Source: a bacterium (GTDB taxonomy: Bacteria; 4484-113; JALSIF01). From it: a DNA stretch of 20,115 bases. Position 1 is the stretch's first letter, and every line of letters begins with the position of its first letter. The stretch lies in the NCBI GenBank assembly GCA_026981635.1, contig JALSIF010000137.1:1-20115 (forward strand), written 5' to 3'. The notes beneath the pieces were generated by a model. The model made no database searches, had not been told where the DNA came from, and worked only from the letters and a program-made list of their open reading frames with translations. This document shows, piece after piece, positions 1-20,115 of the stretch. Both the position numbers and the translations under genes were made by a program.

Positions 1-3000
1 GGTGAGGCTTCCCTCGGCCACTCCGGCAAGCTCAACCTGGCCGGGAGCAAAGAGAGCGGCGAGATCGGCCAGGGTGAGCCGGTCGGTAGCGACGGTGAGG
101 GATACCCCCTCCCGGGCGAGGGCCGATCGGGAGGGGTTGATCAGCTCCAGGAAGGAGAGGGGGACACTGCCCGAGGCGGTGAGCCTGCCCCCGTATCCCC
201 CCTGGGTGGCGGGGGACAGCTCCAGGTAGCGCAGCTCGGTCCTGCCCCCCTCACTGTGGATGAGCCCCTGCAGGGTGCGCAGGCTGAGGCGGGAGATAAT
301 TATCTGGGTGCCAGAGAAGTCCAGGTCAAAGACCGGCCGCCCCTCAGGATCGGAGGTGAGGGTGAGGCGCAGACCCACCCTCCCCTCCATGGGTGGCAGA
401 AGGCCCGGGAGCAGGGCGCCGATCAGGCTCAGGTCACCATAGGGAAGCTCCAGGGTGATGAGGCTCTGGGCCGGGTCCCGCAGGTGGTAGATGCCCTGGC
501 CGGTGAGGGTTCCCCAGTCGCTGTCCAGGCTGAGCTCGTCAAAGCTGATCACCTCCCCCCGCTTGGCGAGAGATAGGCGCAGCACCCCTGGTCCCGCCTG
601 GCCGATGCTCAGCGCCTGGCTCTCCACCACCAGGCTGAGGTCGGGGTTGTCCACTGGCCCCTGGCCGGAAAGCTCGCCAAACAGGGGCCCGGAGACCTGG
701 CCGAGCTTGCCCAGGCCAGTAAGTGCAGCCAGGGTGCCGGCATCTATCCCACTCAGCTTCAGCCTTGCCCCCAGATGGCTCACCCCCTGGGCGAAGCCGA
801 GGTCAAGGACTCCCTCAAGCTCCCCCAGCCGGTCCCTCACCAGCAGGCGGGAGAGGTGGAGCTTGAGCCCCAGGGGCGGGGTGGGGGAGGGGGGAGCTGC
901 TGCCTCTCCCGCCCTCTCCTGCAGGGGGAAGGGCAGCCAGCTTCGGCCGGGCAGGAAACCTCCCCCAACGGCGGGAGAGGTCTGACCAGTCAGGGACCAG
1001 CCCGGCAGGGGGGGAGAGGAGCTGTTTCCTGGCGGAGAAAGGGACCCCAGCTTACCTGTGGTGACCGGAGGGAGTGGAGAGGTTCGCGCGGGCGGAGCGG
1101 GGGTCAGGCTGGCGGTAAACTCCAGCCTCTCCAGGGGCCGTTTGCCGATCATGGCCAGGTCTGAGCGGTAGCTGGCCACCAGGGTGGGCCAGCGGAGCGG
1201 CCCACTCACCGTCAGGGTAAGCTCTCCGGTGGTAACCAGGGGATAGCCGGGAGCCAGCAGCTGGACGAAGGGGGTGATACCCAGCTCGGGTGAGTGGAGG
1301 GTAAGGGCCAGCTGGTCAGGGCGGACCACCCCCTGAAACTCCACCAGCCCCCCCTCAAACAGGAAACTTCCCCCCTCCACCAGCAGGATGCCCCCCTCCA
1401 TCTTGCCCTGCCCGCGGATCTCCTCCAGCCTGAGCTCCCCTCCACCGGCGGGCAGGATCAGGCTTCCCCCGGCCAGGCGCAGGCTGGCCTCGGGTCGCTC
1501 TCCCCGCCGCCAGAGGAGGGAAAAGCTTATGGGCAGGTTTCCCCCGCTTTCCGCCACCAGCAGAGCGGGGGAGAGGTGCCTGAGCTGCCCTTTCATCTCC
1601 ATCCGACCCGGTCCGGGGAGGGAGAAGGAAAGCTGGCCGGCCAGCACCGGCGAGCTGAGGCTGAGGGAGCCGCTACCCTCGTCCTGCAGGTAGGAGAGCT
1701 TGCCGCGGAAGGGAAAGCTAAGCTCCCCCGACCGGGCTTCTCCTGTCAGGGTGGAGGTAAACACTCCTCCCTTGAGGTAAAACTCGGCCCCCAGCCGGGG
1801 GATCTCCATACCCGGGAGGCTAAGCCCCTCAGCAACCACACTGCCCTGCCAGCCCATCCTTGGTGCATAACTTAGTTGGGCGGCAAACCCCGCCCTCAGG
1901 GGGGGCTGGCTGAGACTCAGATGTCCGCTTACGGCTGCCCGCCTCAACCTTCCCTCGGCCAGCTCAAGCTCTCCGCTGGCCTCCCTCAGCGCCATGTCGC
2001 TGATCCGAACCTCCGGTGAGGCCAGAGTCAGGGTGATGCGGGGGGGCCCTCCCAGGCGGCCCTCAACCACACCCTCCCCCGACAGGTCTCCCCTCAGCTC
2101 GGCGGGGAGGGGAATCCCCGCTTGGGTGAGCAGCCTGAGGGGCAGGCTCTCTGCCACCACCGCCCCCTGGTAGGAGCCCTTACCCACCACCCCGCTGGCC
2201 GCCAGGGTGAACCCTTTCCCCCTGAGCTCGGCCCGCTCCAGGACGAGCAGCTCGCCCTCGCTGTGGGCCTGGATCCGGCCCCTCAGGCCCCGCTGACCGA
2301 AGAGGCTGAGTTCATCAAGATCTGCCTTGAGCTCCAGCTGGGGGGGGTGGCCCCTTTTCAGGCCCAGCCTGATATCGGCGGAGACCACTCCCGCCGGCCT
2401 TGCCCCGGAGGGGAGGGCGAAGAGGTGGCTGAGCAGACTTTGATCAAGCTTCCCCAGGTCCGCCAGCCTGAGGGAGAGGACGGCATCCAGGGAATCTGGC
2501 CGCACCAGGGCCTCCTTAACGGTGAGGGAGCCGCCGAGGTATGCCGCCCGGGCCCGGGTGATGCGTATCCCCCTGAGATCTGCCACCCAGCCACCCGCCA
2601 GCTCCACCTGCCCCAGCTCCACCTCTCCCAGGGATAGCCGGGGCAGGCGGAGGCTGAAGCTCAGCCCCCTAAGGGTAGTTATGCCCCGGCGGTGGGAGAG
2701 CTCAAGCGTTAGGTCGGCTTCTCCTCCCGGGCCGGCCATCCTCTCCGCCAGGGGAAAGAAGCGAGCTACCGCGCCAAGGAGCTGGTCTGCTGGCTGTCGC
2801 CTGAGGCTGATCCCTAGCTTCCAGCCGCCGGGGTCAAACTTCCCCTCCAGCCGTCCCACCACCGGTTCGCTCAGGTTGAGGCGGAATCCTCCCCCCTCTC
2901 CCCCCGCCGGCAGCCACAACCTCCCCCGGGAGATGGCCAGGCCGAGAGTGGGTTCGGTGGTCGGCTCGGGCAGGGGCTGGGCCAGGCCGAGCAGGGTGCG

Positions 3001-3543
3001 CACCTTGGGGGGTAGCTCCTTCCCCAGGGGGGGAAGCTCCTTTATCCGCCAGGCCTGGTCCAGGTAGCTGAGCCTGAGCTCGGAGGCGGTGACCACCACC
3101 GTCCACTTGGAGCCTGGGCGCTCGGTGGGAGGGCGGAGGAGCTTGCTCAGGTTGAGCTTTCCGTCCCGGAACCTAGTCAGGTTGAGCTCAGCCCCCGCCA
3201 GGTGGATCCTGAGCTGGCGGGTGAGGGGAACCACTCCCACCGAGACCCGGCTGGCGTGGAGCACCACCTCTCCCGCTGGATCCTTGAGCACCGCCTCCCT
3301 CAGCACCAGGGTGGAAATCCCCCCCAGGCTGGCCTCCGCATAACTGAACTGGCCGTTAATGCTCTCTCCGATGAACTCAGCCAGCCTCTCAGCCGCCAGT
3401 CGGTTGAGGGGCGCCCTGAGAAGGTAGAGTGCCGCGAGAAGAAGGGCAAGCAGGAGGAGGGCCCTCCGCCCCCAGCGCCCGATCCTGGCGAGGGGGGACT
3501 GCCTGCCCGCTTTCCCCTTACCTGAGTTTCTCTGGTGGGTCAA
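1..3543 (-). CDS. tamB: TamB/AsmA-like giant envelope protein, N-terminal 1181 residues (continues past the left edge)
   Basis: One reading frame stays open on the minus strand from 3543 to base 1, ending on a whole codon at the edge. It begins at TTG (3543-3541); an in-frame TAG two codons upstream makes this the earliest possible start, and later starts would lose the membrane anchor. Residues about 28-42 are one hydrophobic helix after a basic N-terminus (N-in, bulk in the periplasm). The segment at about 45-90 resembles the AsmA/TamB N-terminus, with a degenerate 'LREAVLKDPAGEVVL' stretch. The rest is a long succession of short amphipathic beta strands, as in the lipid-conducting beta-groove of this superfamily, broken by a Pro/Ser/Gly-rich low-complexity stretch at about residues 811-890. 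The start lies 10 nt after the mlaD stop, so it is the fourth gene of the mla operon. The diagnostic TamB C-terminal domain is outside the window, so AsmA-like or YhdP-like remain possible. Confidence 0.82.
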   Translation of the reverse strand, partial: MTHQRNSGKGKAGRQSPLARIGRWGRRALLLLALLLAALYLLRAPLNRLAAERLAEFIGESINGQFSYAEASLGGISTLVLREAVLKDPAGEVVLHASRVSVGVVPLTRQLRIHLAGAELNLTRFRDGKLNLSKLLRPPTERPGSKWTVVVTASELRLSYLDQAWRIKELPPLGKELPPKVRTLLGLAQPLPEPTTEPTLGLAISRGRLWLPAGGEGGGFRLNLSEPVVGRLEGKFDPGGWKLGISLRRQPADQLLGAVARFFPLAERMAGPGGEADLTLELSHRRGITTLRGLSFSLRLPRLSLGEVELGQVELAGGWVADLRGIRITRARAAYLGGSLTVKEALVRPDSLDAVLSLRLADLGKLDQSLLSHLFALPSGARPAGVVSADIRLGLKRGHPPQLELKADLDELSLFGQRGLRGRIQAHSEGELLVLERAELRGKGFTLAASGVVGKGSYQGAVVAESLPLRLLTQAGIPLPAELRGDLSGEGVVEGRLGGPPRITLTLASPEVRISDMALREASGELELAEGRLRRAAVSGHLSLSQPPLRAGFAAQLSYAPRMGWQGSVVAEGLSLPGMEIPRLGAEFYLKGGVFTSTLTGEARSGELSFPFRGKLSYLQDEGSGSLSLSSPVLAGQLSFSLPGPGRMEMKGQLRHLSPALLVAESGGNLPISFSLLWRRGERPEASLRLAGGSLILPAGGGELRLEEIRGQGKMEGGILLVEGGSFLFEGGLVEFQGVVRPDQLALTLHSPELGITPFVQLLAPGYPLVTTGELTLTVSGPLRWPTLVASYRSDLAMIGKRPLERLEFTASLTPAPPARTSPLPPVTTGKLGSLSPPGNSSSPPLPGWSLTGQTSPAVGGGFLPGRSWLPFPLQERAGEAAAPPSPTPPLGLKLHLSRLLVRDRLGELEGVLDLGFAQGVSHLGARLKLSGIDAGTLAALTGLGKLGQVSGPLFGELSGQGPVDNPDLSLVVESQALSIGQAGPGVLRLSLAKRGEVISFDELSLDSDWGTLTGQGIYHLRDPAQSLITLELPYGDLSLIGALLPGLLPPMEGRVGLRLTLTSDPEGRPVFDLDFSGTQIIISRLSLRTLQGLIHSEGGRTELRYLELSPATQGGYGGRLTASGSVPLSFLELINPSRSALAREGVSLTVATDRLTLADLAALFAPGQVELAGVAEGSLT

Positions 3544-3553
3544 TGCCTAAGCC

Positions 3554-4921
3554 CTAGAAGTCAAAGCGGAGGCCCAGGGTGAGGTGATTATCCTGGAAGG
3601 CGTCCTCCACCCCGAAGACCAGCCGGTAGCCCGGGCCGATGGGGTAGGTGAGGTAGGCGTTGGTCTTCACATCGTTGGGGTCATAGACATCAAGGTCCAG
3701 CGCCGCCTCCCCCAGGAGCAGCCTTGTGCCCAGGGCCCACTTCCCCCGGTGGATGCCTCCCCGAAGCTGGACCGGACCCTGCCAGGTGCCCGCTTCCAGG
3801 GTGAGCTTGCCCCCCTCTCCCAGGTTGTCCACCCCGGTGAGGAAGGCGCTGTCACCCATGCGAAGCTCCAGCCTGAGGTCGCCGCGAAACTCGTCCTCCC
3901 TCTTCGGGTCGCGGGTGAGCAGAGCGCGCTGGGTGATGCTCTTGGAGAACTGGATGTTGTCCTCCTCCCCCTCTCCCTCGGTGCCCAAAAGGTCGTTTAT
4001 CCCCGCCACCGCCCGGTCAACCCGGGTGAGGGTCTCGTTTAGGTGGACTACCGTCTTCTTGGCCTCCTCCACCGTCTCCTTGGTGAGCCTGGCCGCCGCC
4101 ACCAGACTGGACTTCACCTCCGGGTCGCCGGTGATGTCAGAGATGTCAGAGAGGATCTCGTTTAGCTCCCTTGAGCTTTGGTCCAGGTTCTTGGCCAGCT
4201 GGTTGAGGGAGGAAAGCAGCTCCTCATTGGTCAGCGCCTGGCGGATCTGTCTGGCCAGAATGGCAAAGTTTTCCGCCGCCGCCTGCATGTTGGCGGTGGT
4301 GGCGCTGATCTCGTCGGCATTCTCCACCACCACGCTGTTTAGGGAGGTGATCAGCCGGTTGATGTTGTCAAGGGTCTCGCCCACCTGCTGGTTAAGCTCC
4401 TTAAGGGACCTGCCCAGGGGGTCCTCCTCTAGGTAGCGGTTGAGGTTGTCAACCAGCTGACTTGCGTTGGCCAGCAGCTCCACCCCCCGGGTCATCATTT
4501 CGTTAAAGTCGGGCCCCTTGTGACCGGTCTCAAAGGTGTGGCCCGGAGCTACCTCCTCCCCTGGCTTGGGCGGACCTGTGGGGAAGTCAACCGCCACGTA
4601 GCTCTCCCCCAGGTAGCCGGAGGAGAGGATGGTGAAGGTGGCATCCTCGGGCAGCCTGAAGCTCTTTGCCAGTTCCAGCTTCAGTCTGGCCCTCCCCTGA
4701 TCATCAAGGCTGATAGATGCCACATAGCCCACCTGCATTCCCGCCTTCTTGACCAGGCTCTGCTCCTGGATTCCCTCCACGCTGTCAAACACAACATAGA
4801 CCGGATAGGTGGGTTCGGCCATGCTCACCCTGACCAGGGAGAAGGCCAGCCAGCCCAGGATCACCGCCGCCACCAGGACCACGCCAACCTTGACCTGAAG
4901 GCTAAGTTCGCTCGTGTCCAT
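3554..4921 (-). CDS. mlaD: MCE-family substrate-binding protein MlaD with C-terminal beta-barrel-like domain
   Basis: 455 residues, much longer than the roughly 180 of E. coli MlaD. Residues 11-33 form an N-terminal membrane helix and about 38-115 the MCE domain ('VYVVFDSVEGIQ', 'GYLGESYVAVDF'). About 138-312 is a long, mostly helical region rich in Asn/Leu/Glu heptad-like stretches, expected to form the periplasmic coiled tube of the hexamer. About 343-455 is a run of alternating amphipathic strands ('DLRLELRMG', 'KLTLEAGTW', 'WALGTRLLLG', 'YRLVFGVED') closing with 'LTLGLRFDF*'. A terminal Phe after a strand is the classical BAM recognition signal of outer-membrane barrels. I infer an inner-to-outer membrane bridge, as described for MlaD of Veillonella parvula. 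ATG 4921 follows two AGGAGG-type ribosome sites 15 nt after the mlaF stop. Confidence 0.93.
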   Translation of the reverse strand: MDTSELSLQVKVGVVLVAAVILGWLAFSLVRVSMAEPTYPVYVVFDSVEGIQEQSLVKKAGMQVGYVASISLDDQGRARLKLELAKSFRLPEDATFTILSSGYLGESYVAVDFPTGPPKPGEEVAPGHTFETGHKGPDFNEMMTRGVELLANASQLVDNLNRYLEEDPLGRSLKELNQQVGETLDNINRLITSLNSVVVENADEISATTANMQAAAENFAILARQIRQALTNEELLSSLNQLAKNLDQSSRELNEILSDISDITGDPEVKSSLVAAARLTKETVEEAKKTVVHLNETLTRVDRAVAGINDLLGTEGEGEEDNIQFSKSITQRALLTRDPKREDEFRGDLRLELRMGDSAFLTGVDNLGEGGKLTLEAGTWQGPVQLRGGIHRGKWALGTRLLLGEAALDLDVYDPNDVKTNAYLTYPIGPGYRLVFGVEDAFQDNHLTLGLRFDF

Positions 4922-4936
4922 CTCTCCTCCTACCTC

Positions 4937-5752
4937 CTAGTGACGATGCTGGTCGTCAACTCCTTCAGCGGGGGAGCCCTTCTGGCCCGCCGCAATCAGC
5001 CTTCTTAGTCCGGCGGTGAAGGCCTTGACCCTGGGGTCTTCTGAGGTCAGCAGCTTTTCCGGGCTCCCCACCTGGTTAATCTTTCCCCCGCTGAGCATAA
5101 GGACCTCGTCGGCCACCTCCATCACCGTGTCCAGGCTATGGGTGACCACGATGCTGGTCAGCCCCAGACGGCGGTTGGTCTCAACGATCAGCTGGTCCAC
5201 CACCTCGGTGGTGAGGGGATCAAGGCCGGTGGTGGGCTCGTCGTAGAGCAGAAGCTCGGGCTCAAAGATGAGGGTGCGGGCCAGCGCCACCCGCTTCTTC
5301 ATCCCCCCGGAAAGCTCATTCGGCATCTGTCCCGCCGCTTCCTCAATGCCCAGTTTCTCAAGCACTTCCATCACCCTTCGGCGGCGCTGGGCCGGAGGCA
5401 CCCGCTCCACATACCTTAGGTAGAACTCCACGTTCTCGTAGACGGTAAGGGAATCAAACAGCGCCCCCTCCTGAAAGACCAGGCCAATGCGCCCGCGCAG
5501 GCTGCCGTCGTGGTTGGCCAGGTAGGGCTCCACTCCAAACACCTCAATCCGGCCGGCGGTGGGACGGATGAGCCCCATGATCAGCTTCAGGATGGACGAC
5601 TTTCCCGCCCCGCTGGGGCCGATGATGGCGACGACCTTCCCCCCCTCCACGGTGAAGCTTGCCCCCTCAAGCACCCGCCTCCGGCCGTAGCTGAGGCTCA
5701 CCCGGTCAAAGCGGACCACCACCTCCTGCCTGCCTCTCTCCCCCCGCTCCAT
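4937..5752 (-). CDS. mlaF: ABC transporter ATPase MlaF (phospholipid transport)
   Basis: Cytoplasmic ATP-binding subunit that powers the MlaE permease. Of 271 residues, the Walker A motif 'GPSGAGKSS' is at 45-53, the Q-loop at Q94 ('LVFQEGALFDSLTV', the form usual in Mla ATPases), the signature 'LSGGMKKRVALAR' at about 147-159, Walker B 'LLLYDEPTTGLDP' at 167-179 (catalytic E172), and the switch His in 'VVTHSLDT'. The length matches the family. ATG 5752 lies 2 nt after the mlaE stop, so translation is probably coupled. Its place between a MlaE permease and an MCE protein fixes the assignment beyond a generic ABC ATPase. Confidence 0.95.
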   Translation of the reverse strand: MERGERGRQEVVVRFDRVSLSYGRRRVLEGASFTVEGGKVVAIIGPSGAGKSSILKLIMGLIRPTAGRIEVFGVEPYLANHDGSLRGRIGLVFQEGALFDSLTVYENVEFYLRYVERVPPAQRRRRVMEVLEKLGIEEAAGQMPNELSGGMKKRVALARTLIFEPELLLYDEPTTGLDPLTTEVVDQLIVETNRRLGLTSIVVTHSLDTVMEVADEVLMLSGGKINQVGSPEKLLTSEDPRVKAFTAGLRRLIAAGQKGSPAEGVDDQHRH

Positions 5753-5754
5753 GG

Positions 5755-6510: not shown

Positions 6511-6530
6511 GGGGCTGTCCCAGGCAGGCT

Positions 6531-6536
6531 AGGATA
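6531..6536 (-). promoter_or_regulatory. Possible -10 box for the mla operon
   Basis: TATCCT on the minus strand, 20 nt upstream of the mlaE ATG. No convincing -35 box at 16-18 nt. It lies in the short intergenic space shared with the divergent folC promoter, so the two promoters nearly overlap. Confidence 0.35.
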
Positions 6537-6561
6537 ACACAGCCCGAGCCCCTCGCCGGCC

Positions 6562-9207: not shown

Positions 9208-9223
9208 GGCTTGAGGCGAGCGA

Positions 9224-9229
9224 ATTCTA
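9224..9229 (-). promoter_or_regulatory. Possible -10 box for the ferredoxin pair
   Basis: TAGAAT on the minus strand, 16 nt before the ATG at 9207; initiation about 7 nt downstream would leave a leader near 10 nt. No recognisable -35 box at normal spacing. It shares the intergenic space with the divergent MFS gene. Confidence 0.35.
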
Positions 9230-9285
9230 ACATAGCCAGGCGCCCCTCGCCGCCCTGCCGGCCTGCTAGATTAGGGGCCAAGGCC

Positions 9286-10689
9286 GTGGGGAGAAGCACT
9301 ACTAGACCCCTGGTTGAACCCCGTCGCCTGGCCGCCATGGCCAGCTTCTGGTTTGCGGTCCACTTCTTCTGGACGGTGGTGCTGTCGGTCTTCGTCCAGT
9401 CCCGCCTGGAGGAGCTGAGGGAGCTTGGCCGCCTCCCCTTCCCCGAGGGGACCTCCCTGGCCCTGATCCTGGCCAGCGGGGCCCTCTTCTCCATCGCCGT
9501 TCAGCTTTCGGTGGGCTTTCTCTCCGACCACACGGTGGGCCCCTATGGGCGGCGCAAGCCCTACCTGGTCAGCGGGGCGCTGATGGCGGTGGCGGCCATC
9601 TTCGCCCTCTTCCTCTCGCCAAGCTTTATCTCCCTGCTTCTTTCATACCTGGGGGTCCAGTTTGCGGTCAACTTCGCCTCGGTCCCCTACCAGAGCTACC
9701 TGCCCGACCTGGTCCCCCCCACCATGCACGCCCGCGCCTCGGCCTACCTGGGGGTGGCTCATCTATCGGGAAAGCTTTTGGGGCTTATCTCCTTTGCCCT
9801 GCTGGTTTTTTTCAGTGCTCCCCGGGTAGTGCTGCCGGCCACCTTCGCTCTGGTCTTTCTCGCCGCGGCGGCCATTACCGTGCGCGGGGTGGGGGAGGGG
9901 CCGGCCGAGGAGCCGGTCACCGAGCTGGACCTCAGGCGCGTCCGCCACCTGCTTCCCCGCAGCCGGCTGGTCTTCCCCGCCCTGCCCGAGGAGGGACTCT
10001 GGTCCGCCGCCTGGCGTCGCTTTGCCGACTTCAGCCTGCCCACCGGGGGCGACTTCTTCTGGGTCTGGCTTAGCCGCCTGGTGGCACATCTTGGCTTCTA
10101 CACCTTCCTTGACTTTCTCTACTACTACGTAAGAAGCGGGCTCAGCACCGCCGGCCTCATCCCTGGCATGGAGGACCCCCAGCAGGTGCTCACTCCCCTT
10201 ATCCTGGTGGTGGCGGTGCTGGCCGGCTACCTGGGCAACTGGCTGGCCGGCCTTCTGGGCGACCGCTACCACAAGCGCACCCTGATCTGGCTTAGTCTCG
10301 CCTTGGGGGCCGTCTCCTTGGTGGGCTTCATCCTTACCGAGAGCTACTTTGTCGCCCTAGTTATGGCGGTGGGCATGGGGGCCGGCTGGGGCGCCTTCCT
10401 CACCCTGGACTGGGCCTACGCCACCACCCTGATGACGCCGGAAAAGAGCGGCCGCTTCATGGGCCTGTGGGACGTCTCCACCTTGCTTCCTCAGGTTGCG
10501 GCAAGCACCATTAGCGGCCTCGCCCTGGATCGACTCTCCTCCCTCTTCCTCGCCCAGGGCCTCAGCCCCCAAGTGGCCGAGGCCCAGGCGGTAAGGCTGA
10601 TCTTCTTTTCCATCATCTTCTGGTTCGCCCTGGCCAGCCTGCTGCTTATCAGGGTGAGAAGCGGAGCCCCCCTGGCCAGCACCTCTTAG
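9286..10689 (+). CDS. Major facilitator superfamily transporter, SLC45/sugar-type
   Basis: About 467 residues with some 12 hydrophobic helices. The loop 2-3 signature 'GPYGRRKPYLVSG' and 'VPYQSYLPDLVP' fit the SLC45-like and GPH-like group of MFS proteins, many of which carry glycosides or disaccharides with a cation. The second half repeats a weaker form, 'GLLGDRYHKRTLIW'. Substrate cannot be read from sequence. Start: GTG 9286 has AGGGG 7 nt upstream and gives a basic N-terminus before helix 1. ATG 9337 ('MASFWFAVHFFW') would begin inside helix 1, and TTG 9211 gives a Pro/Arg-rich leader unlike the family. Single gene, divergent from the ferredoxin pair and ahead of fliI. Confidence 0.85.
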   Translation: MGRSTTRPLVEPRRLAAMASFWFAVHFFWTVVLSVFVQSRLEELRELGRLPFPEGTSLALILASGALFSIAVQLSVGFLSDHTVGPYGRRKPYLVSGALMAVAAIFALFLSPSFISLLLSYLGVQFAVNFASVPYQSYLPDLVPPTMHARASAYLGVAHLSGKLLGLISFALLVFFSAPRVVLPATFALVFLAAAAITVRGVGEGPAEEPVTELDLRRVRHLLPRSRLVFPALPEEGLWSAAWRRFADFSLPTGGDFFWVWLSRLVAHLGFYTFLDFLYYYVRSGLSTAGLIPGMEDPQQVLTPLILVVAVLAGYLGNWLAGLLGDRYHKRTLIWLSLALGAVSLVGFILTESYFVALVMAVGMGAGWGAFLTLDWAYATTLMTPEKSGRFMGLWDVSTLLPQVAASTISGLALDRLSSLFLAQGLSPQVAEAQAVRLIFFSIIFWFALASLLLIRVRSGAPLASTS

Positions 10690-10719: not shown

Positions 10720-10748
10720 TTGTTTTCCCTGCCGAGGGCAGGTATCAT
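10720..10748 (+). promoter_or_regulatory. Probable sigma-70-type promoter of fliI
   Basis: TTGTTT (10720-10725), 17 nt, TATCAT (10743-10748). The predicted start of transcription is within a base or two of ATG 10756, so fliI mRNA would be leaderless. No Shine-Dalgarno sequence precedes the ATG. Confidence 0.5.
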
Positions 10749-10755
10749 CAGAGCG

Positions 10756-12108
10756 ATGGATCTCCGCACCAAGGCCCGCCTGGTGGAGAAGGTGGCCCCC
10801 TGCCGCTACCTGGGGCGGGTTGAGCGGGTGGCGGGGATCCTCATTGAGGCGGTCACCCCCAAGGTCTCCATCGGCGAGATCTGCTACATCCTCTCCGACT
10901 ACACCGACCTTTCCGCCCCCGGCCACCCCCGCCGCACGGTGCGCATCCCTGCCGAGGTGGTGGGGATCGACCGGGAGCGCACCTACCTCATGCCCTTTGA
11001 GTTCGTGGACACCATCTCGGCCGGCGCACCGGTGGAGACCACCGGCAGCCCCTTTGCGGTGAGGGTGGGGGAGGAGCTGCTGGGCCGGGTGCTTAGCGGC
11101 CTCGGCACCCCCATTGACCAGGGTGGGCCGGTGGAGCCTCCCCATGTGGCGCCGGTGGTAAACCGCCCCCCCCGGCCCCTGGAGCGCCCCCGCATCAGCG
11201 AGCTGCTCTCCTCGGGGATAAAGAGCATTGACTGCCTGGTGGCCTGGGGCAAGGGCCAGCGGCTGGGGATCTTTTCCGGCTCCGGGGTGGGCAAGTCCAC
11301 CCTGCTGGGGATGATCGCCAGAAACTCCAGCGCCGACGTAAACGTGATTGCCCTGATTGGCGAGCGGGGCAGGGAGGTGCGCGAGTTTATTGAGCGTGAC
11401 CTGAGGGAGGAGGGGCTGAGGAAATCGGTGGTGGTGGCGGTGACCAGCGACGAGAGCCCCATCATGCGCCTCAAGGGGACCCTGGTGGCCCACACCATCG
11501 CCGAGTACTTCCGCGACCGGGGAAGGGATGTCCTCCTGCTCATGGACAGCCTCACCCGCTACGCCTACGCCCTGCGCGAGGTGGGCCTGGCCCTGGGCGA
11601 ACCCCCCACCACCCGGGGCTACACCCCCTCGGTCTACGCCCGCATCCCCCAGCTCTGTGAGCGGGCCGGGCTCACCGAGCGGGGCTCCATCACCGCGGTC
11701 TACACCGTGCTGGTGGAGGGGGACGACCTTACCGAGCCGGTCTCCGATATTGCCCGAAGCGTCCTGGACGGCCACGTCACCCTCTCCCGGCGGCTGGCCA
11801 ACGAGGGCTTCTATCCCCCGGTGGACGTACTTGACTCGGTGAGCCGCCTGATGTACGACCTGGTAAGCGAGGAGCACCGCCAGGCCGCCCAGTGGGCCAG
11901 GCAGGTGCTGGCTACCTACCGGGAGGCGGAGGAGCTGATCAACATCGGCGCCTACCAGCGGGGCAACAACCCCCGCATTGACCATGCGGTGGACTTCTAC
12001 CCCCGGCTGATGGAGTTTTTGCGTCAGGATCGGGCGGAGAGGGTGGAGTATGCCCGTTTCCTGGCCCAGTTCATTGAGCTTTGGCGGACCGCCCAGGCCC
12101 AGGCCTAG
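10756..12108 (+). CDS. fliI: Flagellar type III export ATPase FliI
   Basis: 450 residues from ATG 10756; a TTG at 10720 would add 12 residues but lies in the promoter. Cytoplasmic ATPase of the flagellar export gate, related to the F1 beta subunit. Walker A 'SGSGVGKST' at 174-182, 'IGERGREVREF' with the catalytic Glu (E207) at 201-211, Walker B 'VLLLMD' with D264, and 'GEPPTTRGYTPSVYARIPQL' at 281-300, which is diagnostic for FliI/type III ATPases over F1. The N-terminal beta-barrel domain is complete. The usual neighbours (fliG, fliH, fliJ) are absent here; it stands between an MFS gene and rpsP, separate from the flgFGA genes 5.7 kb away. A non-flagellar secretion ATPase is possible but unlikely given flgF, flgG and flgA. 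Confidence 0.94.
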   Translation: MDLRTKARLVEKVAPCRYLGRVERVAGILIEAVTPKVSIGEICYILSDYTDLSAPGHPRRTVRIPAEVVGIDRERTYLMPFEFVDTISAGAPVETTGSPFAVRVGEELLGRVLSGLGTPIDQGGPVEPPHVAPVVNRPPRPLERPRISELLSSGIKSIDCLVAWGKGQRLGIFSGSGVGKSTLLGMIARNSSADVNVIALIGERGREVREFIERDLREEGLRKSVVVAVTSDESPIMRLKGTLVAHTIAEYFRDRGRDVLLLMDSLTRYAYALREVGLALGEPPTTRGYTPSVYARIPQLCERAGLTERGSITAVYTVLVEGDDLTEPVSDIARSVLDGHVTLSRRLANEGFYPPVDVLDSVSRLMYDLVSEEHRQAAQWARQVLATYREAEELINIGAYQRGNNPRIDHAVDFYPRLMEFLRQDRAERVEYARFLAQFIELWRTAQAQA

Positions 12109-13698: not shown

Positions 13699-14386
13699 CC
13701 CGCCCACCTTCTGGCTCCTCACCACCAACCCCGCCTTCATGGAGACCTACTTTGAGGAGGGGGTGGTGGGCCGGGCAAGGCGACTGGGCCTCATCCGGGT
13801 CTTTCCCCTTGACCTTCGCCGCTTCGCCGAGGACCGCCACCGCAAGGTGGACGACCAGCCCTACGGGGGAGGGCCAGGCATGGTGCTCATGGTGGGTCCC
13901 ATCTACCGCGCCGTTGAGTTTGTCCGCTCGCGGGTCCCCCGAAGGGAGGAACTCACCGTGGTACTGACCGATGCGGGGGGGGAGAGTTTTGACCAGGGGC
14001 TGGCCGCCCAGTTTTCCCGCCCCCGCCACCACACCCTAATCATCTCCGGCCGCTATGAGGGGGTTGACCAGCGGGTGGCCGACCACCTGGCCGACCGCCT
14101 GGTCAGGGTGGGGGAGGCGGTGCTTTCCTCGGGAGATCTGCCCGCCCTGGTGATGGTGGATGCCGCCGCACGGCTGGTGGCCGGGGTGCTGGGCAACCCG
14201 CTGAGCCTGGCTGAGGAGACCGGGGGGGAGCTGGTGGACTATCCGGTCTACACCCGCCCGCCAGAGTTTAGGGGCTGGCGGGTCCCCGAGATCCTGCTTT
14301 CGGGCCACCACCGCGAGATCAGGCGCTGGCGCACCGAGTGGCGCAGGCACCGTCCCGACCCGGGGGAGGGGAGGGATACAAGTTGA
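13670..14386 (+). CDS. trmD: tRNA (guanine37-N1)-methyltransferase TrmD
   Basis: 238 residues. SPOUT-fold enzyme that methylates G37 of tRNAs with G36, using S-adenosylmethionine. Visible: 'DRHRKVDDQPYGGGPGMV' at 55-72, 'SGRYEGVDQRV' at 127-136 (usual form CGRYEG), the trefoil-knot part 'VGEAVLSSGDLPALVMVD' with D164, and 'VPEILLSGHHREI' at 205-217. The knot motif departs from the usual 'SIGDYVLSGGE'. ATG 13670 is the best start in frame: the conserved domain begins about 11 residues later ('TFWLLTTNPAFM'), and ATG 13634 would add more unmatched residues. No ribosome site, consistent with coupling to rimM. Confidence 0.95.
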   Translation: MSALSLCPASPPTFWLLTTNPAFMETYFEEGVVGRARRLGLIRVFPLDLRRFAEDRHRKVDDQPYGGGPGMVLMVGPIYRAVEFVRSRVPRREELTVVLTDAGGESFDQGLAAQFSRPRHHTLIISGRYEGVDQRVADHLADRLVRVGEAVLSSGDLPALVMVDAAARLVAGVLGNPLSLAEETGGELVDYPVYTRPPEFRGWRVPEILLSGHHREIRRWRTEWRRHRPDPGEGRDTS

Positions 14387-14410
14387 CATCGCCCCCCTGG
14401 AGGGTAGAAT
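14383..14410 (+). promoter_or_regulatory. Strong sigma-70-type promoter of rplS
   Basis: A perfect TTGACA (14383-14388), 16 nt, TAGAAT (14405-14410). The -35 box overlaps the trmD TGA stop. The leader would be about 25 nt with GGAG 7 nt before the rplS ATG. This is the closest match to consensus in the window and would give L19 extra expression over the enzymes upstream. Confidence 0.65.
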
Positions 14411-14441
14411 AACCCGCTAATCTGGCCTTGGGAGCTCTGGC

Positions 14442-14867
14442 ATGGCGGTAGATCTGGACAAGCTGGTTCGCGACTATGAGAAGACCCTGCTCAGGGACGA
14501 TGTCCCCGAGATTGAGCCGGGCGACACGGTGCGCGTGCACATCCGCATATACGAGGAGACCCCCGAGCTCCTTCACCTCAAGAAGATCCACCGCATCGCC
14601 GCCAGGGGTAAGGAGCAGAAGCAGGCCAAGGTGGAGCGGGTGCAGGTCTTTGAGGGGGTGGTGCTGGCGGTGGACGGCCAGGGGCTGGGCAGGTCCATCA
14701 CCGTGCGCAAGATCTCCAACGGCGTCGGGGTGGAGAAGGTCTTCCCCCTTCACAGCCGCCGGATTGAGAAGATTGAGGTGCTCCGCCACGCCAAGGTGCG
14801 CCGGGCCAAGCTCTACTACCTGAGAAATAGGGTGGGCAAGGCGGCCCGCCTCAAGGAGCGCCGCTAG
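14442..14867 (+). CDS. rplS: 50S ribosomal protein L19, with internal insertion
   Basis: 141 residues; L19 usually has about 115. The conserved parts '[14 protein letters not shown]', '[14 protein letters not shown]', '[19 protein letters not shown]' and '[20 protein letters not shown]' are intact. Where most L19 proteins have a tight turn ('VEGNRER'), this one has about 23 extra residues (about 37-63), charged and probably helical, ending '[10 protein letters not shown]'. Own strong promoter upstream. Followed 7 nt later by lepB. Confidence 0.97.
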
Positions 14868-14874
14868 GGGGTCC

Positions 14875-15744
14875 ATGTTGAACTTCCTTTTTAGGCGAAG
14901 GGAGGAGCCGGCCTACGAAGTCTCCCTCTCGCCCACCCGCATCCCCGCCGACGGTCGTTCCAGCGCCGAGGTGGTGGTTAGGCCCAGGCCGGGCCATCAA
15001 CCGCCCCAGCAGCTTACCTTCACCCTCTCCCAGGGAAGCTTTTCCCCCGACGAGGTGGTGCGAGAAAGAACCATCACCGCCGACCCCGAAGGGGTCTTCC
15101 GCTTCCGGGTCTACGCCCCACGCCGCCCCGCCGTAATTACCATCGCCGCCGGCGGCAGGCCCATCGCCGAGCTAACCGCCCGCGCCAGCCTCATCCAGTC
15201 CCTGATCTATGAGTGGGTGCCCATGATCGCCATCGCCATCGTGCTGGCATTTATCCTGCGCACCTATGCGGTGGCCGCCTATTACATCCCCAGCGGCTCC
15301 ATGGAGCCCACCCTGCAGGTGCGTGACCGGCTCATTGCGGTCAAGTTCCCCTACGTGGTGCTGAAGGAGAAGCCCAGGTTTGGTGACATCGTAATCTTCA
15401 AGCCCGACTGGTCGCGCAAGGACTTCATCAAGCGGGTAATCGGCCTACCCGGCGACACCATTCAGGTGGTAAAGGGGGTGGGGGTGTTTAGGAATGGCAA
15501 GCTTTTGGAGGAACCCTACGTTAAGGCACCCCCCAACTACAACTGGGGGCCCGAGGTGGTGCCGGAGGGCAAATACTTCGTCCTGGGCGACAACCGGATA
15601 AACAGCTGGGACAGCCACTACTGGGGCTTTCTGGAACAGGACGACATTGAGGGCAAGGCGGTGCTGGTCTTCTGGCCTCCCCGCCGCTTCAGCCTGCTTA
15701 CCCGCAGCCGTCCCCGGGAAGTGGAAGGCGAGCCCGCCCCCTAG
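14875..15744 (+). CDS. lepB: Signal peptidase I with an N-terminal Ig-like (Big_1-type) domain
   Basis: 289 residues. The S26 domain is complete: membrane helix at about 113-134, catalytic Ser142 in 'SGSMEPTL', Lys186 in '[12 protein letters not shown]', and '[14 protein letters not shown]' at 238-251. It cleaves signal peptides on the outer face of the inner membrane. Ahead of the helix is an extra domain (about 14-100) resembling the invasin-type bacterial Ig fold: '[20 protein letters not shown]' opens it and '[15 protein letters not shown]' lies in the middle. No hydrophobic segment precedes it, so by the normal LepB topology it would face the cytoplasm, odd for an Ig domain. ATG 14875 is preceded by AGGGGG; TTG 14878 is an alternative. 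Cotranscribed with rplS. Confidence 0.95.
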
Positions 15745-15746
15745 GC

Positions 15747-15760
15747 GGGAGCAATCTCCC
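15747..15760 (+). repeat. Small perfect hairpin before rbgA
   Basis: GGGAG-CAAT-CTCCC, 3 nt before ATG 15764. The GGGAG arm would be the only Shine-Dalgarno-like sequence here and is paired in the hairpin. CATAAT (15760-15765) also resembles a -10 box that would start a transcript at ATG 15773. Confidence 0.35.
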
Positions 15761-15763
15761 ATA

Positions 15764-16642
15764 ATGTCTTCCATGGCCACGGCTGACCAGCGGCCCATCT
15801 TTCCTCCCCACCTTGCCCAGCACATTGATGTGGCCTGCCTGCTCATTGATGCGCGCCTGCCCAACTCAACCCTGTGGATTGAACAGAGCCTCAGGGGAAA
15901 GGAGCTTCTGGTGCTAAACAAGGCCGACCTTGCCCCCGAGGAGGGAGTGGGGGAGTGGGTGGCCTTCTTTCGCCGCTACGGCTATCCGGCGGTGCCGGTC
16001 TGCTCGGCCGACGGCTCGGGATTTATGGTGCTTGGCCGGGTGCTTCTGGAGTGGCTGGAGCGAAAGAGCCGTGAGCGGGAAAAGCTTGGCATCGCCCGCA
16101 CCGTGCTCCGGGTGGCGGTGGTGGGCCTACCCAACGTGGGCAAGTCCACCTTCATCAACCGGCTGGTGGGCCGGCGCAAGGTGAGGGTGGGGGATGTGCC
16201 CGGCATTACCCGCGGCCACCAGTGGGTCCGGGTGCTGGAGGATGTGGAGCTGCTGGACACCCCGGGGGTGATCCCCCTGGGCTCAGCCAGGAAGGAGAAG
16301 CAGGCCCTCTTTGCGGTGCTAAACCTCGCTCCCCTCACCGACGAGCTCCAGGGCCAGGCGGAGGAGACCCTCTATGGGCTGGTTCGCGACCACCTGAGGG
16401 AAGGCGCCCTTAAACGCTATAAGCTGGAAGAGTTTCCCGACACCCCCTACGACCTCTACCGGCAGGTGGCAGAGAAACTCTCCCTTCGCCTGCGCGGCGG
16501 CAGGCTGAACCTGCTCAAGGCCTTCCACGCCGTGCGTCGCGACCTCAACCATGGGAGGCTGGGAAGGCTCATGATTGAAAAGCCTCCCCCCGACCTCGGG
16601 GGTATCTATTCTCCCCTGTTTGAGGACCGCTCCCAGGGCTGA
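15764..16642 (+). CDS. rbgA: Ribosome biogenesis GTPase RbgA (YlqF)
   Basis: 292 residues from ATG 15764; ATG 15773 would drop three. Circularly permuted GTPase of late 50S assembly. Motif order G4 'NKAD' (52-55), G5 'CSADGSG' (80-86), G1 'GLPNVGKST' (121-129), G2 'GITR' (T149), G3 'DTPG' (165-168). The N-terminal 'FPPHLAQ' aligns with the 'FPGHMAKA' of RbgA, keeping the His implicated in GTP hydrolysis, but about eight residues after it are missing. The C-terminal ANTAR-like RNA-binding region is present. Starts 20 nt after lepB. Confidence 0.93.
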
Positions 16643-16662
16643 AGCCAGCGGGAAGACTACCA

Positions 16663-17760
16663 ATGGCGGTACTTGAATTTACAGTCTCTCCTGAGGAGGC
16701 GGGAAGCCGCCTGGACGTGGTGGTGACCACCCACATCGTCAAGGTCCACCCGCGGGCGGCAGGATTCACCCGCTCCCAGGCCCAGCGGATGATTGAGGCG
16801 GGCTGGATCAGGGTGGACGGTGAGGTGCGCCCCAAGGGCTACCGCCTGAGCGAGGGGGAGCGGGTGGTGGTGGAGCGGCTGGAGGAGCCCACCCGCCCCG
16901 GCGGCCTCCACCCCCTGGAGCGCTACTACGTGGAGGGAAACCTGATTGAGGTGCTCTACGCCGACCAGTATCTTGCGGTGCTAAACAAGCCCAGGGGCCT
17001 TGCCGTCCACCACACCCCGGGCTCAAACCTTCCCGCCCTGATAAACATCCTGCCGGAGATGTTTCCCGCCCTGAGAAAGCGCCGCGACCCAAACCGGGGC
17101 GGCCTGGTCCACCGGCTGGACAAGCAGACCAGCGGGGTGCTGGTGATCGCCCTGGACGTCCAGACCCACCAGCTCATCGCTGACCAGTTCAAGAAGCGGC
17201 AGGTAAGGAAGGAGTACCTGGCCATCTGCTACCACACCCCACCCCAGGCTGAGGGGCTGGTCCGCCTCACCCTCTCGCGCCACCCGAGGAGCCGCAAGAA
17301 GATGGTCCCCCAGGAGGAGGGGCGGGAGAGCCTCACCCGCTATCGCTTCCTCCACCGCTGGGGGGAAAGCTACTCGGAGATGCTTTTTTATCCCCTAACC
17401 GGCCGCACCCACCAGATCCGGGTCCACGCCGACTACCTGGGGGTGCCCATCGTGGGCGACGAGCTCTACGCCCGCCGCTACAACCAGTACCTCTACCGCC
17501 TGCTGAGGGACCCCGGCTACCGCCATGCCCCGCCCTTCATCCGAAAACTTGTCGAGGCAGAATCCTTTCCCCAGTGGAGCAGGGCCCTGCTTGAGTCCCC
17601 CGGCCAGCTCCTCCACGCCCGCCGCCTCACCTTCCTCCACCCCTGGAAGGGGGAGGAGATGACCTTCACCGCCCCGGAACCTGAGATCTTCACCCTGACC
17701 CGGAGCCTGCTTGATGAGCTCTACCCCCGCTCCGACCAGCTCTCCCGCGAAGAGGAGTAG
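16663..17760 (+). CDS. Large-subunit pseudouridine synthase, RluA/RluD family
   Basis: 365 residues. The N-terminal S4 RNA-binding domain (about 14-72, 'SRLDVVVTTH', 'GWIRVDGEVRPKGYRL') is followed by the catalytic domain with 'HRLDKQTSGVLVIA' (150-163; nucleophile D153) and 'GRTHQIRVH' (247-255). It converts specific uridines to pseudouridine in 23S rRNA or tRNA; the exact site cannot be told. Between 'YARRYNQYLYR' and 'LLHARRLTFLHPW' it has some 30 residues more than typical RluD. It starts at ATG 16663, 20 nt after rbgA, and follows that ribosome-assembly gene in the same direction. rluD is the closest name. Confidence 0.92.
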   Translation: MAVLEFTVSPEEAGSRLDVVVTTHIVKVHPRAAGFTRSQAQRMIEAGWIRVDGEVRPKGYRLSEGERVVVERLEEPTRPGGLHPLERYYVEGNLIEVLYADQYLAVLNKPRGLAVHHTPGSNLPALINILPEMFPALRKRRDPNRGGLVHRLDKQTSGVLVIALDVQTHQLIADQFKKRQVRKEYLAICYHTPPQAEGLVRLTLSRHPRSRKKMVPQEEGRESLTRYRFLHRWGESYSEMLFYPLTGRTHQIRVHADYLGVPIVGDELYARRYNQYLYRLLRDPGYRHAPPFIRKLVEAESFPQWSRALLESPGQLLHARRLTFLHPWKGEEMTFTAPEPEIFTLTRSLLDELYPRSDQLSREEE

Positions 17761-17781
17761 TCTTCCACCGCCCCTCCCCCC

Positions 17782-17808
17782 TCAAGCCCCCCTGGGGTTG
17801 GCCGATTT
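17782..17808 (+). promoter_or_regulatory. Possible sigma-28 (FliA)-type promoter of flgF
   Basis: TCAAGCCC (17782-17789), 11 nt, GCCGATTT (17801-17808) resembles the flagellar sigma consensus TAAAGTTT-N11-GCCGATAA, with the exact spacing and 6 of 8 matches in the -10 part. Initiation would fall near 17815, a few bases before ATG 17821. The -35 part is weak. Confidence 0.35.
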
Positions 17809-17820
17809 ATGGGGTGGCGG

Positions 17821-18609
17821 ATGCTTCGGGGGATATACACCGCGGCAAGCGGCCTTCTGGCCAATCAGGAGCAGCTTGATATCACCGCCAACAACATCGC
17901 CAACGCCACCACCAACGCCTTCAAGCGCGACCTTCTGGTCCACCTTGCTGCGCCAAACCTCTCCATCTCCCGCATTGAGGGGATGGACCGGGTCCCCGAG
18001 CCGGGCAGGCCCATGATGGAGGCCGAGCCGGTGGGGGTGCTCTCTACCGGCATCACCGACAGTGAGGTCTTTACCGACTTTGCCCAGGGCGCCCTGGTGG
18101 AGACGGGTAGGAACCTGGACCTGGCCATCCAGGGGCCGGGATTCTTCGTCCTGCTTACCCCCCAGGGGCTGCGCTACACCCGGGCGGGCAACTTCACCTT
18201 GTCCGCCGACGGCACCCTGATCAGCCCCCAGGGCTTTCCCGTGCTGGGCGAGCAGGGTCCCATCCTCATCCAGGGCCAGCGGGTGGAGGTGGGCCGGGAC
18301 GGCATGGTGGTGGTGGACGGGGCGGAGGTGGACCGCCTCCGTCTGGTGGAGTTTGCCAACCCCCAGGGGCTGGTCAAGGAGGGGGGCACCCTCTACCGGG
18401 ACGAGGGTACCGCCGGCCTCCGGCGGGACGGCCGCTCGGTGGTGGTAAGCGGTGCCCTGGAGCAGTCCAACGTAAGCACGGTTGACGAGCTGGTGGGTCT
18501 GATCGTGAACCTGCGCCAGTTTGAGACCGGCCAGCGGGCCATCAGGGCCTACGACGAGACCCTGGAGCGGGCGGCGAGCCGGGTGGGGCTGGTGGCCCCG
18601 GCCGGCTAG
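17821..18609 (+). CDS. flgF: Flagellar basal-body rod protein FlgF
   Basis: 262 residues from ATG 17821, the position matching family N-termini ('MLRGIYTAASGLLANQEQLD'); ATG 17809 would add 'MGWR'. N-terminal rod motif 'DITANNIANATTNAFKRD' and C-terminal 'LEQSNVSTVDELVGLIVNLRQFE' form the conserved coiled-coil ends of axial proteins; the middle (about 75-200) holds the FlgE/F/G-like beta domain ('NLDLAIQGPGFFVLL'). Proximal rod subunit exported by the type III machinery powered by FliI, without a signal peptide. It is the first of the flg genes here and the less conserved of the two paralogues. Confidence 0.93.
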   Translation: MLRGIYTAASGLLANQEQLDITANNIANATTNAFKRDLLVHLAAPNLSISRIEGMDRVPEPGRPMMEAEPVGVLSTGITDSEVFTDFAQGALVETGRNLDLAIQGPGFFVLLTPQGLRYTRAGNFTLSADGTLISPQGFPVLGEQGPILIQGQRVEVGRDGMVVVDGAEVDRLRLVEFANPQGLVKEGGTLYRDEGTAGLRRDGRSVVVSGALEQSNVSTVDELVGLIVNLRQFETGQRAIRAYDETLERAASRVGLVAPAG

Positions 18610-18685
18610 CGGGAAGTTGGAGGGAAATGAAGGAGGCTTGATGGAGGGAAACAGGAAGAGCTAGGGGAGAAAGGATTGGGCTGGA

Positions 18686-18703
18686 CCCCGCCCCCGGGCG
18701 GGG
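18686..18703 (+). repeat. Perfect G+C-only inverted repeat in the flgF-flgG gap
   Basis: CCCCGCCC-CC-GGGCGGGG, an 8-base perfect inverted repeat (7-bp stem with a 4-base loop as RNA). No T-run follows, so it is not a classic terminator. It may attenuate read-through, protect a 3' end, or bind a regulator. Confidence 0.6.
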
Positions 18704-18710
18704 AGGCCTA

Positions 18711-18736
18711 GGCGGCGCGACCGACCGACCGCCGCC
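18711..18736 (+). repeat. Second hairpin with a CGAC-repeat loop
   Basis: GGCGGCG (18711-18717) pairs with CGCCGCC (18730-18736). The 12-base loop is exactly three copies of CGAC. Placed 7 nt after the first hairpin, giving a tandem structure. Confidence 0.55.
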
Positions 18737-18790
18737 CCATCCCCAGGCTTCTTCCCCCCTCCTAGGGCCAAAGCTTTGACCATGAGCGAA

Positions 18791-18797
18791 AGGAGGG
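18791..18797 (+). promoter_or_regulatory. Strong ribosome binding site of flgG
   Basis: AGGAGGG, 10 nt before ATG 18808, the best Shine-Dalgarno match among the plus-strand genes. A nine-codon reading frame (18782-18811, MSERREVRP) runs across it and its TGA overlaps the flgG ATG-ATG; it has no ribosome site of its own. Confidence 0.7.
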
Positions 18798-18807
18798 AAG
18801 TAAGGCC

Positions 18808-19596
18808 ATGATGAGGGCACTCTACACCGGAGCCTCGGGGATGAAGGGGCAGCAGTTTCGCATTGACGTTACCGCCAACAACATCGCCAACGTAAACACC
18901 ACCGGCTTCAAGCGCGACCGGGCCGAGTTCCAGGACCTCATCTACCAGAACCTGCGCGTCCCCGGCGCCACCTCCGCCACCGGCACCCAGTTTCCCACCG
19001 GCCTCATGGTGGGCCTGGGGACCCACCCGGTGGCCACCTTCAAGATGTTCTTCCAGGGCCCCCTGGTGGAGACCCAGAACCCCCTGGACCTGGCCATTGA
19101 GGGGGACGGCTTCTTCCAGGTGCTGATGCCCGACGGCACCATCGCCTACACCCGCGACGGCAGCTTCAAGATTGACGGGCAGGGGAACGTGGTGACCAAC
19201 GAGGGCTTCTTCCTGGAGCCGCCCCTCACCGTCCCCGCCAATGCGGTGGAGCTGGTCATCACCCCCGACGGGGTGGTGAACGTGCGCCTGCCCGGCGAGC
19301 CGAATCTCACCCAGATCGGCCAGATTGAGACGGTGCGCTTCATCAACCCGGCCGGCCTCCAGCCCATCGGTCGCAACCTCTTCCAGGAGACCGACGCCTC
19401 CGGGCCGCCCCAGCTGGGCCAGCCGGGGCTGGAGGGCCACGGGTTTGTGCGCCAGGGCTTTCTGGAACAGTCCAACGTGCAGATCGTGGACGAGATGATT
19501 GACCTCATCATCGGCCAGCGGGCCTTTGAGACCAACAGCAAGTCGGTCCAGGTGAGCGACCAGGTGCTGGGGATCGCAAACGAGCTCAAACGGTAG
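18808..19596 (+). CDS. flgG: Flagellar distal rod protein FlgG
   Basis: 262 residues, the usual length. 'MMRALYTGASGMKGQQFRID' and 'TANNIANVNTTGFKRDRAEFQDL' are highly conserved FlgG N-terminus; 'LEQSNVQIVDEMIDLIIGQRAFETNSKSVQVSDQVL' (read in two parts) is the conserved C-terminus. The middle holds 'NPLDLAIEGDGFFQVLMPDG'. Distal rod subunit passing through the P and L rings. It starts at ATG 18808, with a second ATG immediately after. Followed by flgA after 7 nt. Confidence 0.97.
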   Translation: MMRALYTGASGMKGQQFRIDVTANNIANVNTTGFKRDRAEFQDLIYQNLRVPGATSATGTQFPTGLMVGLGTHPVATFKMFFQGPLVETQNPLDLAIEGDGFFQVLMPDGTIAYTRDGSFKIDGQGNVVTNEGFFLEPPLTVPANAVELVITPDGVVNVRLPGEPNLTQIGQIETVRFINPAGLQPIGRNLFQETDASGPPQLGQPGLEGHGFVRQGFLEQSNVQIVDEMIDLIIGQRAFETNSKSVQVSDQVLGIANELKR

Positions 19597-19603
19597 CTGA
19601 GGG

Positions 19604-20115
19604 ATGGCTAGTCCTAGACTAAGAAGCAGTTTTCGGCGGCTTGGGGAGTTCCTTGGGGTTTCCCTGGCCGCCTTCTCCCTGCTTCTTGGGCTTTCCCTTC
19701 CGGCAATGGCAGCTCTGCCCGCGGGCACTCCGGAGTGTGCCCGGCGGGTGATGCAGGCGGTGGAGCGGGAGCTGGTGGAAGCCTACCCGGGGGTCGAAAT
19801 GGAGGTGGTGTGGCTAAACCCGCCCAGGTGCGAGAAGGCCCTCCCGCTCCACCGCATTGAACTGGTGGGCGGCGACGAGCACCGCCTCCCCCTGGTGGCA
19901 AAGCTCATGGACCGCCAGGGTGGGGTGCTCGCCTCGCTGGTGCTTCGCTCCCTCCTTGAGGTGAAGCTGCCCCAGCTGGTGGCCAAGCGGGAGTTTGCCT
20001 TCGGGGAGGAGTTTGACCCCGAGGGAATCGCCCTCAGGCAGGTCACCAAGCGCCCCGGGGAGAGCTTCCTTGCCGACCCGGGGCAGGTTTCTGGCATGCG
20101 TACCCGGATGCGCAT
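19604..20115 (+). CDS. flgA: Flagellar P-ring assembly chaperone FlgA, N-terminal 170 residues (runs off the right edge)
   Basis: Open from ATG 19604 to the window end. A basic N-terminus, then a hydrophobic stretch (about 16-36, 'FLGVSLAAFSLLLGLSLPAMA') with an 'AMA-ALP' Sec cleavage site, gives a periplasmic protein. The mature part has 'VEMEVVWLNPPRC' early on and, near the edge, 'LVAKREFAFGEEFDPEGIAL' followed by a 'GQVSGMRTRMR' stretch. This is the pattern of the FlgA SAF domain, where 'G..ar..i..G' comes next. Order flgF-flgG-flgA matches many diderms and predicts flgH/flgI beyond the edge. Two Cys flank the early mature part. GAGGG sits directly against the ATG. Confidence 0.85.
   Translation, partial: MASPRLRSSFRRLGEFLGVSLAAFSLLLGLSLPAMAALPAGTPECARRVMQAVERELVEAYPGVEMEVVWLNPPRCEKALPLHRIELVGGDEHRLPLVAKLMDRQGGVLASLVLRSLLEVKLPQLVAKREFAFGEEFDPEGIALRQVTKRPGESFLADPGQVSGMRTRMR

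What the first reader, a model, noticed from the sequence alone, without database searches (positions are those of the whole stretch)
1..20115. TCGA is almost absent and shapes codon choice
Reading the whole window I found TCGA only at 10530, 10967, 17552 and 19794. A simple independent-base estimate at two thirds G+C would be around 60 (my rough estimate). CCGA, GCGA and ACGA are common, and so are ATCGCC and TTCGCC, so it is the tetramer that is avoided, not CG or NTC codons. Before Asp/Glu codons Ile is written ATT, Phe TTT, Val GTT and Leu CTT or CTG, while the same residues use C-ending codons elsewhere. Candidate causes: past or present TaqI-like restriction at TCGA, or C-to-T decay of a methylated TCGA into TTGA/TCAA.
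Basis: partly seen in the sequence, partly recalled or inferred. Interest (0 to 1): 0.78.

Follow-up and report, generated by a model that had tools for sequence, protein, structure and literature searches.

The report
Genome nearly purged of TCGA
This bacterium has lost about nine in ten of its expected TCGA words across the sampled genome, bending its codon choice; this is most likely the known footprint of a DNA-cutting (restriction) defence system, but no matching enzyme was found in the recovered genome, so the cause is not proven.

Summary
TCGA occurs exactly four times in the window, at the stated positions, against 35 expected by a Markov model. It is the rarest of all 256 tetramers. 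In 649 kb of the same draft genome there are 106 against 1,284 expected (0.08; about 0.06 in genes). Nine genomes of the same class show 0.77-1.46, so the depletion is lineage-specific. Before Asp/Glu codons ATC falls from about 80% to 2% and TTC from 45% to 0.5%. Fourteen of 15 tRNA genes keep TCGA in the T-loop.

The likeliest cause is avoidance of the site of a TCGA-specific Type II restriction-modification system, present or lost, a documented phenomenon. The recovered genome shows no TaqI-type nuclease or methylase and no C5-cytosine methylase. It has two beta-class methylases, which look like GATC and GANTC enzymes. The enzyme is therefore missing from the assembly or gone.

The missing sites reappear as TTGA/TCAA, and depletion is deepest where C-to-T is silent (0.02, against 0.15 and 0.31 in the other phases). 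That fits m5C decay, but also mutation-limited purging by restriction. A Thermus control with an m6A TCGA system shows a similar order. The mechanism stays open.

The parts
1..20115 (.). Whole window: TCGA-depleted stretch, 4 sites against 35 expected by a Markov model
   Evidence: Counts and Markov O/E; same depletion in 78 other contigs of the genome
10530..10533 (.). TCGA site in an MFS transporter gene (9211-10689, +), phase NNT|CGA (GAT CGA)
10967..10970 (.). TCGA site in a FliI/EscN-type ATPase gene (10720-12108, +), phase NTC|GA (ATC GAC)
17552..17555 (.). TCGA site in a gene read by eye as an RluD-type pseudouridine synthase (16663-17760, +), phase NTC|GA (GTC GAG)
19794..19797 (.). 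TCGA site in an open frame at the window's end (19604-20113, +), phase NTC|GA (GTC GAA)

Best explanation
TCGA is the recognition site of a Type II restriction-modification system that lived long in this lineage. Occasional cutting of unprotected host TCGA sites selected against them, so mutations that removed a site (mostly silent C-to-T in NTC|GA contexts) were kept until over 90% were gone from genes. Sites needed for function, such as the tRNA T-loop, stayed. The system is now either lost or lies in the unrecovered part of the genome. Shown: genome-wide, lineage-specific depletion in genes and between genes; retention in tRNAs; no cognate enzyme in the recovered genome. Inferred: that an endonuclease caused it.
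For: O/E 0.08 over 649 kb, the lowest tetramer in the 302 kb where all were ranked, in all flanking contexts. Intergenic DNA is depleted too, so codon bias is not the driver. Same-class genomes are normal, 0.77-1.46. Avoidance of orthodox Type II sites, also as traces of lost systems, is documented in thousands of genomes (PMC4687349). H. pylori carries a measured m6A TCGA methylase and few TCGA sites (608 strand positions in strain 26695; PMC3936762), and Helicobacter phage KHP30 has 6 against 63 expected. T. thermophilus HB8 pTT27 is at 0.55.
Against: No TCGA nuclease or methylase was found; the two methylases present look GATC- and GANTC-type. Depletion is very unequal between phases (0.022, 0.15, 0.31), which equal selection at equilibrium does not predict. 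Fourteen of 15 tRNAs keep TCGA although A57 tRNAs exist.
Confidence: 0.6

Rival explanations
1. Mutational decay: the C of TCGA was (or is) 5-methylated, and deamination turned TCGA into TTGA/TCAA far faster than other mutations, with no nuclease needed.
For: TTGA/TCAA excess about as large as the TCGA deficit (2,802 against 1,823 per strand). Depletion deepest where C-to-T is silent: 0.022 in NTC|GA, 0.15 in TCG|A, 0.31 in NNT|CGA, although NNT|CGA has more silent exits of other kinds. Val GTT rises from 6.5% to 21% before GA while GTG does not.
Against: No C5-cytosine methylase in the recovered genome. Intergenic DNA, where decay is unconstrained, is less depleted than genes. Ile ATA also rises, 5.7% to 14.7%, which is not C-to-T. 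Thermus, with an m6A TCGA system (own knowledge), shows a similar order of phases, on small numbers.
Confidence: 0.22
2. The solitary C157 beta-class methylase (L053:1441-2319, -) is itself TCGA-specific, a remnant of the system.
For: Beta-class m6A methylases for TCGA exist (M.HpyAX, PMC3936762). Genomes with this methylase family plus its companion nuclease are TCGA-poor, median O/E 0.57 against 0.98 without the nuclease. The companion nuclease is absent beside C157.
Against: Best matches are CcrM, whose word is GANTC. CTAG, GATC and GGCC move with TCGA in the same comparison. Class members G003 and G006 carry relatives at 56% identity with TCGA at 0.87 and 0.77.
Confidence: 0.1
3. Codon or codon-pair preference for translation, not a DNA-level cause.
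For: Codon context does matter in this genome: in 4-fold families NNC before G is partly replaced by NNG.
Against: Depletion is seen in all three phases and between genes and in all flanking contexts, and is absent from relatives of similar G+C.
Confidence: 0.03

Closest known systems
Recognition-site avoidance by orthodox Type II R-M systems, including traces of lost systems (Rusinov et al. 2015, PMC4687349; Gelfand and Koonin 1997)
   Same: A short palindrome that is a known Type II site is strongly under-represented in the sampled genome; avoidance without a detectable system is a described case
   Different: Here no close relative with the system is known, and losses are strongly biased to NTC|GA contexts
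TCGA in Helicobacter pylori (M.HpyAX / M.Hpy99VII, m6A, beta class; PMC3936762)
   Same: Same word and rare TCGA (608 strand positions in strain 26695; phage KHP30 6 against 63 expected)
   Different: There the methylase is known and active; here none is assigned
TaqI / TthHB8I of Thermus (TCGA, m6A)
   Same: Same word; pTT27 of HB8 is depleted (0.55) and also writes Phe as TTT before GA
   Different: Weaker depletion, CTC|GA largely kept (16%) and lost CTC replaced by CTG; the TaqI nuclease family is absent from the genome studied here

Membership tests
Type II R-M site avoidance | Site under-represented against a Markov expectation, genome-wide | tested here: met
   106 against 1,284 in 649 kb, O/E 0.08
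Type II R-M site avoidance | Word is a known orthodox Type II site | tested here: met
   TCGA is the site of TaqI (PMC5587805 abstract) and of M.HpyAX (PMC3936762)
Type II R-M site avoidance | Depletion is specific to the lineage carrying the system | tested here: inconclusive
   Lineage-specific: nine same-class genomes 0.77-1.46; but no carrier of a TCGA system is known in the lineage
Type II R-M site avoidance | Cognate nuclease encoded in the genome or in close relatives | tested here: inconclusive
   RE_TaqI absent from own genome; other TCGA nuclease families have no model here; genome 85% complete; no close relatives held
TaqI-type R-M system | TaqI nuclease domain (PF09573) | tested here: not met
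   No match in own genome; the control Thermus composti rings
TaqI-type R-M system | TaqI-type methylase (PF12950 or PF07669) | tested here: not met
   No match
m5C deamination decay of TCGA | C5-cytosine methylase in the genome | tested here: not met
   PF00145 absent in an 85% complete assembly
m5C deamination decay of TCGA | TTGA/TCAA excess and deepest loss where C-to-T is silent | tested here: met
   not exclusive to this cause
m5C deamination decay of TCGA | Intergenic DNA at least as depleted as silent coding sites | tested here: not met
   About 0.10 of a composition-only expectation between genes (11 of 112, RNA genes set aside by hand) against 0.036 in genes on the same basis; small numbers
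m5C deamination decay of TCGA | Methylated C in TCGA in vivo | not testable with these tools
   No long-read or bisulfite data here

The most novel reading that the evidence does not exclude
TCGA was erased by site-specific C-to-T mutation (a methylated TCGA decaying to TTGA/TCAA) rather than by selection against cutting, so a methylase alone rewrote the codon usage of a whole genome.
Probability: 0.22. Interest if true: 0.55.

Novelty: new member of a known kind. Interest (0 to 1): 0.35.

Why it matters
A depletion this deep and this lineage-specific is a fossil of a DNA modification or restriction system, readable without the enzyme. It also gives a clean case to separate selection against cutting from methylation-driven mutation, because the two predict different losses in the three reading phases and between genes. 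In practice, TCGA-poor DNA is a binning and host-assignment signature for this lineage and its phages, and TCGA-rich stretches mark candidate recent arrivals.

Tried and rejected
TaqI nuclease and TaqI-type, Eco57I, type I N6, D12 and C5 methylases were searched in the window's genome: none. 16S rRNA was sought as a further constrained-RNA control and for identity: not in the assembly. The C157 methylase was tested as the TCGA enzyme through 56 relatives: mixed depletion, several palindromes moving together, and a tree on which C157 is a long branch with no TCGA-poor clade around it; left as a minor rival. The companion nuclease of that family has no Pfam family and no solved relative but matches a PADLOC REase_II model. 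Thermus pTT27 was used as a positive control for an m6A TCGA system: useful, but too few sites outside NTC|GA to settle the phase test. Paper searches for TCGA avoidance in thermophiles gave nothing direct.

Full report
Observation. TCGA occurs at 10530, 10967, 17552 and 19794 and nowhere else in the window. The maximal-order Markov expectation is 35.0 (O/E 0.11), the lowest of the 256 tetramers; composition alone gives about 64. The chance of four or fewer at 35 is 4e-11. In the genome sample CCGA and GCGA are at expectation, and in the window other CG palindromes are far less depleted.

The rest of the genome. The window is contig C137 of an unnamed draft genome of 1.75 Mb in 317 contigs, 85% complete. 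I took 79 readable contigs, the window included, 649 kb in all. Contigs under 3 kb read as N and could not be used, and whether the family searches saw them is unknown. TCGA: 106 against 1,284 expected (0.08); genes of 600 bp or more 63 against 1,059 (0.06). In the first 302 kb TCGA was again the lowest tetramer, and all 16 NTCGAN contexts were rare. Nine genomes of the same class gave 0.77 to 1.46. The depletion therefore most likely arose in this lineage after it split from the other families of its class; no closer relative was held.

Codons. In 559 genes: Ile before GA is ATC 2.2%, against 80% before other G-starting codons; Phe TTC 0.5% against 45%; Val GTC 0.3% against 6%; Leu CTC 0.3% against 9%. 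Ser TCG before A is 0.6% against 13% elsewhere, and Arg CGA after NNT is 1.2% against 3-5%. Related genomes show no such effect.

What is kept. Fourteen of 15 tRNA genes found keep TCGA in the T-loop. Of the remaining sites between genes, many lie in tRNA genes, and one at L098:7760 looks by eye like the 3' end of tmRNA. Without these RNA sites, 11 remain in 30.5 kb of gaps of at most 600 bp, against about 112 from composition (subtraction by hand). So non-coding DNA is depleted about ten-fold, less than genes are on the same basis (63 against 1,732).

Which way the sites went. TTGA and TCAA are in excess (2,802 against 1,823 per strand), about as many extra sites as TCGA is missing. In codons with confident gene calls, observed over expected is 33/1,496 = 0.022 in phase NTC|GA, 8/53 = 0.15 in TCG|A and 14/45 = 0.31 in NNT|CGA (Fisher p 3e-10 for first against last). 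At least two of the TCG|A sites are in fact tRNA sites overlapped by an ORF, so 0.15 is an upper value; others lie in real genes such as elongation factor P, and two NNT|CGA sites lie in a phosphomannomutase-family gene. The order follows how easily C-to-T (on either strand) can be silent. That is what deamination of m5C predicts. It is also broadly what a purge limited by the supply of mutations predicts, since C-to-T is usually the commonest mutation (own knowledge). Equal selection at equilibrium does not predict it. As a control I read 150 kb of Thermus thermophilus HB8 pTT27, from a strain with an adenine-methylating TCGA system (own knowledge): O/E 0.55, phases 0.29, 0.58 and 0.96, with Phe TTT 98% before GA. 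The order is similar where m5C is not expected, but only 8 and 3 sites underlie the last two numbers. In Thermus the lost Leu CTC goes to CTG; in this genome the gain is in CTT and GTT, which leaves some weight on directional C-to-T.

Enzymes. Not found in the recovered genome: TaqI nuclease, TaqI_C, C5-cytosine methylase, Eco57I, type I N6 methylase, D12 methylase. Found: two beta-class methylases. The one on C275 is followed by a DpnII-family nuclease, so a GATC system is likely; GATC itself is at 0.79, as expected of a recent arrival. The one on C157 is solitary beside a gene read by eye as MscS-like and an ABC transporter gene, matches CcrM best and is 45-50% identical to alphaproteobacterial methylases, so GANTC is likely. 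Its relatives are spread over bacteria and archaea, many from hot environments by their record titles, 23 of 56 with a nuclease gene just downstream. Genomes with that nuclease are poorer in TCGA (median 0.57 against 0.98), but also in CTAG, GATC and GGCC, so this does not show specificity. Class members with C157 relatives at 56% identity have near-normal TCGA.

Comparison with what is known. Rusinov et al. (PMC4687349) show that sites of orthodox Type II systems are avoided in about half of cases, more so the longer the system has been resident, and that avoidance without a system in the genome is often a trace of a lost one. H. pylori has a measured TCGA m6A beta-class methylase and few sites (PMC3936762), and Helicobacter phage KHP30 holds 6 against 63 expected. 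TCGA depletion linked to an R-M system is thus a known kind of thing; this is a new and deep instance in an unnamed lineage.

Verdict. Observation confirmed and extended to the sampled genome. Best explanation: footprint of a TCGA-specific Type II system, present but unrecovered, or lost (0.6). Main rival: m5C decay (0.22). The pattern of losses is recorded because it could separate the two once a close relative or long reads exist.

Noticed in passing
G000:C275 (L052:622-2487): A DpnII-family nuclease next to a DpnA/CcrM-like methylase, beside a superoxide-dismutase-like gene; TCGA sites lie inside the methylase gene and just downstream (L054:914 and 2553), as if recently acquired.
   Followed up: partly
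L121-L176; e.g. L156:9977-11699, L148:10837-11703: A widespread methylase-nuclease pair in bacterial and archaeal MAGs; the nuclease (about 290 aa) has no Pfam family and no solved relative but matches PADLOC REase_II. Its word is not assigned here.
   Followed up: partly
L174, L173, L148, L147, L150: Other genomes, several with hot-spring-type isolate names, also show strong local TCGA depletion (O/E 0.07-0.21).
   Followed up: partly
L069:3520-9988 (G000:C290): Cluster of TCGA sites in large PKD/Ig-like surface-protein genes, a possible recent arrival in the TCGA-poor genome.
   Followed up: partly
L241-L243 (Thermus thermophilus HB8 pTT27): Phe is TTT 98% and Ile ATC only 17% before GA, yet CTC|GA is largely kept: the depletion in Thermus is not uniform over contexts.
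   Followed up: partly
window 1-3543 (-): Long open frame of 1,181 codons, open at the window start, with no Pfam match, next to mlaD, an ABC ATPase gene and mlaE.
   Followed up: no
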